Assembly (NCBI RefSeq): GCF_030756675.1
Contig: NZ_JAVBXD010000011.1
Location: forward strand, 50,399-114,398
DNA: 64,000 nucleotides
Source: Bacillus multifaciens
GTDB taxonomy: Bacteria; Bacillota; Bacilli; Bacillales; Bacillaceae_G
Direction: 5' to 3'
Below, piece after piece: positions 9,377 to 9,743 of the stretch; within the stretch, counting starts at the first letter, position 1; each line of letters starts with the position of its first letter. The notes below the pieces were generated by a model, which saw nothing but the letters and a program-made list of their open reading frames with translations, did no database searches and was not told the DNA's origin. Made by a program: the position numbers and the translations under genes.

Positions 9377-9396
9377 AGAAGAAGGAGGTGTGCGTG

Positions 9397-9474
9397 ATGA
9401 TTGTAATCGTATATGTGGCTGGCTTAGGTGTTTTACAAAATAAATATCATCACGCAACCTCTACGGACAAATAA
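9397..9474 (+). CDS. Probable 25-residue leader peptide for bmrCD
   Basis: A short ORF beginning MIVIVYVAGLGVLQ and ending HHATSTDK, with a strong ribosome-binding site (GAAGGAGGTG) seven bases before ATG 9397. Its 5' and 3' parts are complementary, so ribosome position would decide RNA folding. It occupies the place of bmrB, the leader gene of the B. subtilis bmrCD operon whose translation senses ribosome-targeting drugs. It is shorter than BmrB (54 residues as I recall) and I see no residue similarity, so equivalence is by position and structure only. Confidence 0.6.
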   Translation: MIVIVYVAGLGVLQNKYHHATSTDK

Positions 9475-9543
9475 CGCTTCTTTTTAGCATGAAAAGAAAG
9501 CGTACGTTGCGTGTGTCGTGACGTACGCTTTTATGCGTTTTTC

Positions 9544-9577
9544 GCATATCGTCAAAGCGACGGTATGCCTTTTTTTG
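9544..9577 (+). terminator. Attenuator terminator upstream of bmrCD
   Basis: A 10-bp stem with one G-T pair (GCATATCGTC, GACGGTATGC), loop AAAGC, then a T-run. It lies about 170 bp before the bmrC start. Confidence 0.85.
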
Positions 9578-9642
9578 TCTCTTTTTTTAGATTGTTCCTA
9601 TACATTTGTATAGTTTCAATAATCAATTTCAGAAAGGTAGGA

Positions 9643-9702
9643 ATGACGATGGAAAAGTATGAGGTTCGTATGGTAAAAACGGAGACGCTAGATAGCGGAT
9701 AA
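9643..9702 (+). CDS. Possible second short leader ORF (19 residues)
   Basis: MTMEKYEVRMVKTETLDSG is preceded by AAAGGTAGG and ends 41 bp before the bmrC start. It could couple translation to bmrC or be incidental. No homology was recognised. Confidence 0.4.
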   Translation: MTMEKYEVRMVKTETLDSG

Positions 9703-9743
9703 CGAGTCGATGTTTACACAACAACGAGAAGGGAGAGGTTACA

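What the first reader, a model, noticed from the sequence alone, without database searches (positions are those of the whole stretch)
9384..9743. Leader-peptide attenuator ahead of bmrC-bmrD
A 25-codon ORF with a strong ribosome-binding site has its 5' end (9385-9401) complementary to its own 3' end (9446-9461). A 10-bp hairpin and then a classical terminator (9544-9577) follow. TATGCG/CGCATA (9532-9548) competes with the terminator stem, so ribosome position could switch read-through. B. subtilis bmrBCD is known to use a translated leader for drug-responsive attenuation. Here the peptide is different and shorter, and a second ORF (9643-9702) follows, so this may be an independently evolved version.
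Basis: partly seen in the sequence, partly recalled or inferred. Interest (0 to 1): 0.7.

Follow-up and report, generated by a model that had tools for sequence, protein, structure and literature searches.

The report
Two-peptide drug-sensing leader before efflux pump
The stretch ahead of a multidrug efflux pump looks like an old RNA switch shared by many Bacillus relatives that reads how well ribosomes translate a short peptide and turns the pump on when antibiotics slow them, followed by a second conserved mini-peptide for which no description was found.

Summary
A 25-codon ORF (9397-9474) with a strong Shine-Dalgarno (SD) site pairs its SD/start with its own 3' end; a hairpin, a competing TATGCG/CGCATA hairpin and a terminator follow. 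"Independently evolved" is not supported. The same architecture precedes bmrC in many genomes of the order: in 82 of 108 non-redundant leaders the first ORF's SD/start is complementary to its own 3' end (shuffles, p<=0.05; control ORF 5 of 100), with 75 different arm pairs.

(1) The ORF's 3' end also pairs with the 5' half of the next hairpin, giving a trp-like four-segment attenuator. (2) The "second ORF" is conserved: 82 of 103 candidates end in [DE][SGD]G-stop (4 of 910 other ORF ends), mostly UAG.

In B. subtilis 168 the equivalent first ORF is a 23-codon ATG frame, not the annotated 53-codon BmrB frame, which only 2 of 10 close relatives keep intact. This may explain why a 2017 study found no clear BmrB homologue ahead of the drug-induced B. 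cereus pump.

The switch is inferred from sequence and folding; equilibrium folding alone favours termination. Nothing was measured. No B. cereus-group relatives were available.

The parts
9177..9206 (+). SigA-type promoter (TTGACA 9177-9182; TATAAA/TAAAAT 9199-9206)
   Evidence: Sequence; 80% identical DNA at the same place in G001 (window 9168-9229) and G002 (9159-9219). Start site not measured.
9217..9377 (.). 161-nt interspersed repeat inserted between promoter and leader ORF
   Evidence: Partial-length copies at 35548-35653 and 47026-47135, two copies in plasmid locus L025, partial ones in L019 and L020. Spacing -35 to ORF start is 220 nt here against 66-68 nt in L001, L002, L057, L003.
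9397..9474 (+). uORF1, 25 codons, SD AGGAGG 9383-9388
   Evidence: a counterpart is called in 158 of 163 leaders, some of them mis-called
9385..9401 (+). arm 1 (SD and start codon of uORF1)
   Evidence: Complementary to arm 2
9446..9461 (+). arm 2 (3' end of uORF1); pairs with arm 1 or arm 3
9474..9503 (+). small hairpin compatible with the 2:3 pairing and exclusive of 3:4
9506..9515 (+). arm 3 (GTTGCGTGTG), pairs with arm 2 (9448-9458) or within hairpin 3:4
   Evidence: 0 of 107 swaps reach it; 3 of 100 shuffles do
9496..9532 (+). hairpin 3:4 (followed by a longer U-run in many relatives = terminator T1)
   Evidence: -23.6 kcal/mol; covariation; relatives read
9526..9559 (+). antiterminator: CGCTTTTATGC with GCATA...AAAGCG; core TATGCG/CGCATA 9532-9548
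   Evidence: Fold -12.0 kcal/mol; 0.78 in nascent RNA to 9560 with a ribosome at the start codon, 0.00-0.19 at the other positions sampled
9544..9576 (+). intrinsic terminator T2 (stem 9544-9568, U-run)
   Evidence: -14.7 kcal/mol; DNA matches over it of 83% in G006, 82% in G002, 91% in G001
9643..9702 (+). uORF2 (start 9643 or 9649), ends LDSG-stop
   Evidence: strict motif in 82 of 103 candidates
9744..11498 (+). bmrC orthologue, TTG start
   Evidence: 66% identical to BmrC of G058, whose contig length I recall as that of B. subtilis 168
11495..13495 (+). bmrD orthologue
   Evidence: Position; best NCBIfam matches are multidrug ABC exporter models, below their curated cut-offs

Best explanation
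A ribosome-mediated transcription attenuator, homologous to the B. subtilis bmrBCD leader. Shown by sequence: four segments whose pairings exclude one another, and a terminator. Inferred: with no ribosome, 1:2 closes and hides the start; hairpin 3:4 then forms and RNA polymerase stops at the terminator. With a freely moving ribosome, the ribosome reaches the stop codon and covers arm 2; 3:4 forms and transcription again stops. With a ribosome slowed by a drug on the first ~14 codons (tetracycline at the start codon, 50S drugs perhaps a little later), arm 1 is covered and arm 2 is free; it captures arm 3 as soon as arm 3 is made, arm 4 is freed to pair with the 5' side of the terminator, and transcription reads into uORF2-bmrC-bmrD. 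uORF1's peptide sequence varies widely, so it probably reports slow translation in general rather than one drug-specific arrest motif. uORF2, present only on read-through RNA, most likely adds a second, translational step: a slowly terminating ribosome at its [D/E][S/G]G-stop end tunes initiation of bmrC (weaker inference).
For: 1:2 in 82 of 108 leaders at p<=0.05 against 5 of 100 for uORF2 used as control; a leader's own 3' half beats other leaders' (top 5% in 48 of 108; for 2:3 in 26 of 108; expected 5.4); 75 distinct arm pairs among the 82. 3:4 and T2 covary. At least one terminator is detected between the two ORFs in 97 of 108, two or more in 53. Nascent-RNA folding: when RNA ends at 9516, 2:3 is 1.00 for the six ribosome edges sampled from 9411 to 9450, 0.00 for the four from 9459 on, and 0.00 in free RNA. 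Literature: B. subtilis bmrCD attenuation needs leader translation and its terminator (PMC4191407, sections 14, 15, 17); orthologue BC0870 rises ~30-fold with tetracycline, >10-fold with chloramphenicol, ~3-fold with erythromycin (PMC5417439 passages); tetracycline stalls ribosomes at start codons in E. coli (PMC12121999 section 9).
Against: 26 of 108 leaders fail the 1:2 test and 67 of 108 fail the 2:3 shuffle test; some failures are mis-called ORFs, others are not explained. In one search, as soon as RNA reaches 9535 hairpin 3:4 already takes over (0.83-1.00), and in RNA complete to 9578 it dominates at every position sampled (0.84-1.00); the full antiterminator wins only with RNA to 9560 and a ribosome at the start codon. 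So read-through needs kinetic trapping that was not modelled. Only 41 of 82 leaders pass all four folding criteria, one of which holds by construction. No RNA or protein data for this strain. uORF2 has no candidate in 10 of 113 leaders and lacks the strict motif in 21 of 103. In B. subtilis kanamycin and gentamycin do not induce, nor did kanamycin strongly in B. cereus, so not every translation inhibitor works.
Confidence: 0.82

Rival explanations
1. Only the terminator matters: general slowing or uncoupling of translation lets polymerase through, and the SD:3'-end stem merely dampens uORF1 initiation.
For: At equilibrium 3:4 dominates whatever the ribosome position once RNA is complete to 9578; 2:3 is the weaker signal (41 of 108).
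Against: 2:3 complementarity beats swapped leaders (26 of 108 in the top 5%, p about 2e-11). 1:2 pairing kept in 82 of 108 leaders with 75 arm pairs argues for a switch.
Confidence: 0.12
2. A ligand-binding riboswitch or T-box, independent of translation.
For: Long structured leader; both kinds of element occur elsewhere in the window.
Against: No Rfam family at gathering score in the leader or in five relatives' loci; best weak match E 0.16, on the other strand. An SD-led ORF inside the structure is called in 158 of 163 leaders. B. subtilis induction needs leader translation.
Confidence: 0.02
3. The 53-codon BmrB frame is the real sensor in B. subtilis and uORF1 is a by-product there.
For: An in-frame BmrB-GFP fusion on a plasmid was fluorescent; start-codon and 5'UTR mutations removed induction (PMC4191407 section 15).
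Against: The chromosomal fusion gave no signal. The GTG has no SD before it and lies inside uORF1. Of 11 leaders alignable over the whole region, chosen without regard to either ORF, all 11 keep an SD+ATG ORF (23-32 codons), but only 3, the 168-like one included, keep the GTG and 53 codons. The published knock-out also changed alternative starts or RBSs, so it probably hit uORF1 too.
Confidence: 0.12
4. uORF2 is not regulatory by peptide: a reinitiation or coupling ORF, or a functional microprotein.
For: Its stop lies 16-45 nt before bmrC in the 82 strict cases; distances vary, as coupling would tolerate.
Against: Mere coupling would not keep [DE][SGD]G and mostly UAG; a microprotein would be expected to keep more than its last few residues.
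Confidence: 0.45

Closest known systems
B. subtilis bmrBCD leader (Reilman et al. 2014, PMC4191407; sections 11, 14, 15, 17 part 1 and passages read)
   Same: Same gene, same place, a promoter, an ATG+SD short ORF whose SD/start pairs with its 3' end, a terminator, and a uORF2 ending IEGG-stop.
   Different: The published leader peptide is a different, 53-codon frame; no 53-codon counterpart here. Middle hairpins differ. uORF2 is not described in the parts read. Here a repeat is inserted in the 5'UTR.
trp-type (E. coli) attenuator (recalled; outlined in PMC4191407 section 17)
   Same: Four segments with 1:2, 2:3, 3:4 logic and a leader peptide.
   Different: Would sense drug-slowed ribosomes rather than one scarce amino acid; here the 1:2 stem hides the leader's own SD/start; often two terminators.
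vmlR and yxjB leaders of B. subtilis; ermK, mef/mel (PMC9226507 and PMC5418344 passages; PMC6851288 start of abstract in a listing)
   Same: Drug-stalled ribosome on a leader or uORF, transcription read-through, resistance gene.
   Different: Unrelated genes; shared sequence was not looked for.
E. coli toiL (PMC12121999 abstract and section 9)
   Same: Multipurpose uORF sensing several drug classes; tetracycline acts at its start codon.
   Different: Controls translation and Rho-dependent termination, not an intrinsic terminator.

Membership tests
bmrCD leader attenuator (B. subtilis type) | Lies directly ahead of a bmrC-bmrD orthologue | tested here: met
   66% identity to BmrC of G058, the 168-sized genome
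bmrCD leader attenuator (B. subtilis type) | Short ORF with SD in the leader, structurally equivalent to that of B. subtilis | tested here: met
   uORF1 and 1:2 arms in both; translation itself not tested
bmrCD leader attenuator (B. subtilis type) | Intrinsic terminator with a competing antiterminator | tested here: met
   as predicted structures
bmrCD leader attenuator (B. subtilis type) | Homologue of the annotated 53-codon BmrB protein | tested here: not met
   No such ORF in the leader; also not intact in 8 of the 10 other leaders alignable to the 168-like one, so not treated as defining
bmrCD leader attenuator (B. subtilis type) | Induction by ribosome-targeting drugs through read-through | not testable with these tools
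   Published for B. subtilis and, as RNA level only, for BC0870
trp-type ribosome-mediated attenuator | Mutually exclusive 1:2, 2:3, 3:4 pairings with ribosome-dependent choice | tested here: inconclusive
   Pairings present; the choice is seen in nascent-RNA folding to 9516, not at equilibrium in longer RNA
Rfam riboswitch, T-box or other catalogued leader | Match at gathering score | tested here: not met
   weak list

The most novel reading that the evidence does not exclude
The leader has two ribosome-reading checkpoints: uORF1 controls transcription past a terminator, and uORF2 is a previously undescribed termination-arrest leader peptide whose C-terminal [D/E][S/G]G-stop (mostly UAG) senses slowed peptide release (drug- or release-factor-stressed ribosomes) and gates bmrC translation. 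This would be conserved through much of the Bacillaceae, B. subtilis included, where the published sensor frame would be the wrong one.
Probability: 0.35. Interest if true: 0.82.

Novelty: new variant of a known kind. Interest (0 to 1): 0.62.

Why it matters
It ties the multidrug ABC pump described in 2014 as the first under leader-peptide transcription attenuation to a conserved, testable four-segment design, suggests how unrelated drug classes could induce it, and gives reason to re-examine the published B. subtilis sensor frame. The conserved second ORF points to regulated translation termination as a possible drug sensor, which can be tested directly in a laboratory strain.

Tried and rejected
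Alignment within the B. cereus group: not possible; 12 loci came back from genome contigs, none titled B. cereus group, no whole genome for the window, no relative in viral contigs. Rfam: nothing. An alignment of 12 leaders blurs arms 1 and 2, so pairing there was tested by shuffles and leader swaps; RNAalifold on four leaders recovered 3:4 and T2 but not 1:2. The first ribosome-mask scan used a wrong pair for 2:3 and for T2; one search corrected 2:3, but its T2 pair (9547:9566, U-U) was still wrong, so no T2 value is used. The first column string for T2 was off by one (corrected). The terminator detector missed the window's own terminator, so its counts are lower bounds. Considered and rejected: SD-sequestration of bmrC by uORF2 (no anti-SD run seen by eye; not computed). 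Rows dropped: L054 (contig end, could not be oriented), 9 duplicate leaders (172 to 163), 5 of 113 representatives without a called uORF1, 3 of 103 uORF2s too short for the control. L034's true uORF2 was out-ranked by another frame and counted as non-motif. The first frame comparison (9 leaders) had been selected by the uORF1 peptide, so its '9 of 9' is circular; one search repeated it on 11 leaders chosen by DNA similarity alone.

Full report
What is there. Upstream of a bmrC-bmrD operon (9744-13495) lies a leader of about 530 nt: a promoter (9177-9206), an interspersed repeat (9217-9377), uORF1 (9397-9474), hairpin 3:4 (9496-9532), a small competing hairpin (9532-9548), a terminator (9544-9576) and uORF2 (9643-9702). 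The SD/start of uORF1 is complementary to its own 3' end: 11 nt perfect, -27.6 kcal/mol for the whole stem, the duplex reached by 0 of 100 shuffles.

Relatives. BmrC was searched in genome contigs (12 loci), in 44 genomes of the genus of G020 (the genome of the B. siamensis locus; 43 with a hit) and in 299 genomes drawn from the order of G001, taken to be Bacillales (205 with a hit at E 1e-200). Leaders were taken from the window, the 12 loci, 59 of 60 automatically fetched loci and 100 stretches fetched by coordinate, mostly from the better-scoring end; leaders of the remaining hits were not read. 172 leaders gave 163 distinct ones and 113 non-redundant ones. The window appears to belong to that group: its BmrC is 66% identical to that of the 168-sized genome, close to the 65% published for BC0870; this assignment is inference.

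Homology, not convergence. Promoter DNA matches at 80% in G001 and G002; the terminator matches at 91%, 82% and 83%, and the bmrC start at 81%, 83% and 80%, in G001, G002 and G006. Where peptide and arm sequences diverge, the pairing often stays. In 108 non-redundant leaders with a called uORF1, 1:2 passes shuffles at p<=0.05 in 82 and at <=0.01 in 68; the same test on uORF2 passes in 5 of 100. A leader's own 3' half ranks in the top 5% of all leaders' 3' halves in 48 of 108 (binomial p about 2e-33). The 82 leaders use 75 different arm pairs. These are covarying pairs in effect, although the counts are of sequences, not independent events. A promoter of at least moderate score was found ahead of 107 of 158 called uORF1s.

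The missing arm. The 3' end of uORF1 (arm 2) is also complementary to the 5' half of the next hairpin (arm 3): in the window 9448-9458 with 9506-9515. Across leaders this passes shuffles in 41 of 108 and ranks in the top 5% against swaps in 26 of 108, weaker than 1:2 but well above the 5.4 expected. In the window 3 of 100 shuffles and 0 of 107 swaps reach it. Hairpin 3:4 and the terminator show 9 of 21 pairs with changes on both sides in 12 sequences (0 of 500 shuffles; slid controls at most 6). In many relatives 3:4 is itself followed by a U-run; at least two terminators are detected in 53 of 108 leaders and at least one in 97.

How it would work. Folding the nascent window RNA with the ribosome as a moving block gives a clean switch when RNA has been made to 9516: 2:3 probability 1.00 with the ribosome edge at the six positions sampled from 9411 to 9450 (first ~14 codons), 0.00 at the four from 9459 on, and 0.00 without a ribosome, because 1:2 holds arm 2. 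With RNA to 9560 and a ribosome at the start codon, 2:3 and the extended antiterminator both stand at 0.78; at the other positions the antiterminator is at most 0.19. Against this, with RNA to 9535 hairpin 3:4 already has 0.83-1.00, and in RNA complete to 9578 it has 0.84-1.00 at every position sampled, so the model needs 2:3 to be kinetically trapped. In other leaders, 41 of 82 meet all four switch criteria; the criterion that a ribosome at the stop blocks 2:3 holds by construction, and the arms were defined by the same complementarity. Tetracycline stalls E. coli ribosomes at start codons (PMC12121999, section 9), the place where the window's antiterminator is most stable, and tetracycline gave the largest response of BC0870 (PMC5417439, passages). 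That link is inference.

B. subtilis frame. L034 comes from a contig of 4,215,606 bases, which I recall as the size of the B. subtilis 168 chromosome; its 53-codon GTG ORF ends 119 nt before bmrC, exactly as published. The ATG frame MPRNLRVYQTVSYWRGKPFVLFS with AAGGAGG 7 nt upstream overlaps it in another frame and carries the 1:2 stem. A first comparison of 9 leaders had been selected by the uORF1 peptide. Repeated without that bias, 11 leaders align to that of L034 over the whole region (L034 itself, 10 others); all 11 have an SD+ATG ORF of 23-32 codons in the same place, whereas the BmrB frame keeps both its GTG and 53 codons in 3 (L034 and 2 others), is 52 or 61 codons in 2, is cut to 16 or 27 codons in 2, and has no GTG at that place in 4. 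The published evidence for the 53-codon frame is a fluorescent plasmid fusion, with no signal from the chromosome, and a start mutant that also altered other starts or RBSs, so it does not separate the two frames. A 2017 paper noted stem-loops but no clear BmrB homologue ahead of BC0870; uORF1 would fill that gap. In B. amyloliquefaciens FZB42 a small RNA between rhaX and yheI (= bmrC) was seen by northern blot, with shorter bands (PMC4634765, passages); it may be the terminated leader, though its strand and ends were not seen here.

uORF2. Chosen without looking at the motif, a candidate with an SD exists in 103 of 113 leaders; 82 end in [DE][SGD]G-stop, against 4 of 910 other ORF ends, three of which also sit just before bmrC. 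All four Gly codons are used at the last position (36/19/14/13) and Asp/Glu interchange, so selection is most likely on the peptide; the penultimate codon is mostly RGY, which leaves some room for an RNA signal. The stop is UAG in 61 of 82 but in only 21 of 108 uORF1s (Fisher p 2e-14). The commonest length is 18 residues (47 of 82), and the stop lies 16-45 nt before bmrC. A pattern scan of 150 genomes gave 32 matches, 29 directly ahead of bmrC by coordinates or tblastn and 3 elsewhere, with 4 for the reversed control pattern. In the window it reads LDSG-UAA, so the UAG preference is not kept here. C-terminal glycine is enriched where apidaecin stalls termination in E. coli (PMC7544508, one passage), which suggests, and no more, a slow-termination sensor.

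What is in print. Searches and 84 of the open PMC library (listings), and the passages named above, show the B. subtilis attenuator but no description of uORF2, of the ATG frame or of the four-segment design. Subscription papers and preprints were not searched.

Verdict. Real, homologous to a known attenuator, with two features that look new: the arm 2:arm 3 switch around uORF1 and the conserved uORF2. Nothing was measured.

Noticed in passing
9217-9377; 35548-35653; 47026-47135; partial 39591-39606: A repeat of about 161 nt with inverted-repeat arms recurs in part in the window and, at 77% identity, twice in a Pseudalkalibacillus plasmid (L025) and in part in L019 and L020. It may be one of the bcr repeats of the B. 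cereus group, but no sequence was available to name it.
   Followed up: partly
L057, between terminator and uORF2: G006 carries an extra stretch of about 60 nt there, seen by eye, that its close relative L002 lacks.
   Followed up: no
6279-6464 (-) and 6739-6924 (-): Two near-identical 61-aa ORFs in tandem, no NCBIfam match.
   Followed up: no
7279-7568: Two 149-nt tandem copies, 92% matches.
   Followed up: no
5432-5611 (-) and 37877-38092 (+): Lysine riboswitch and T-box leader.
   Followed up: no
bmrC leaders among L001-L185: At least two terminators are detected between the two ORFs in 53 of 108 leaders; why two are kept is not explained.
   Followed up: partly
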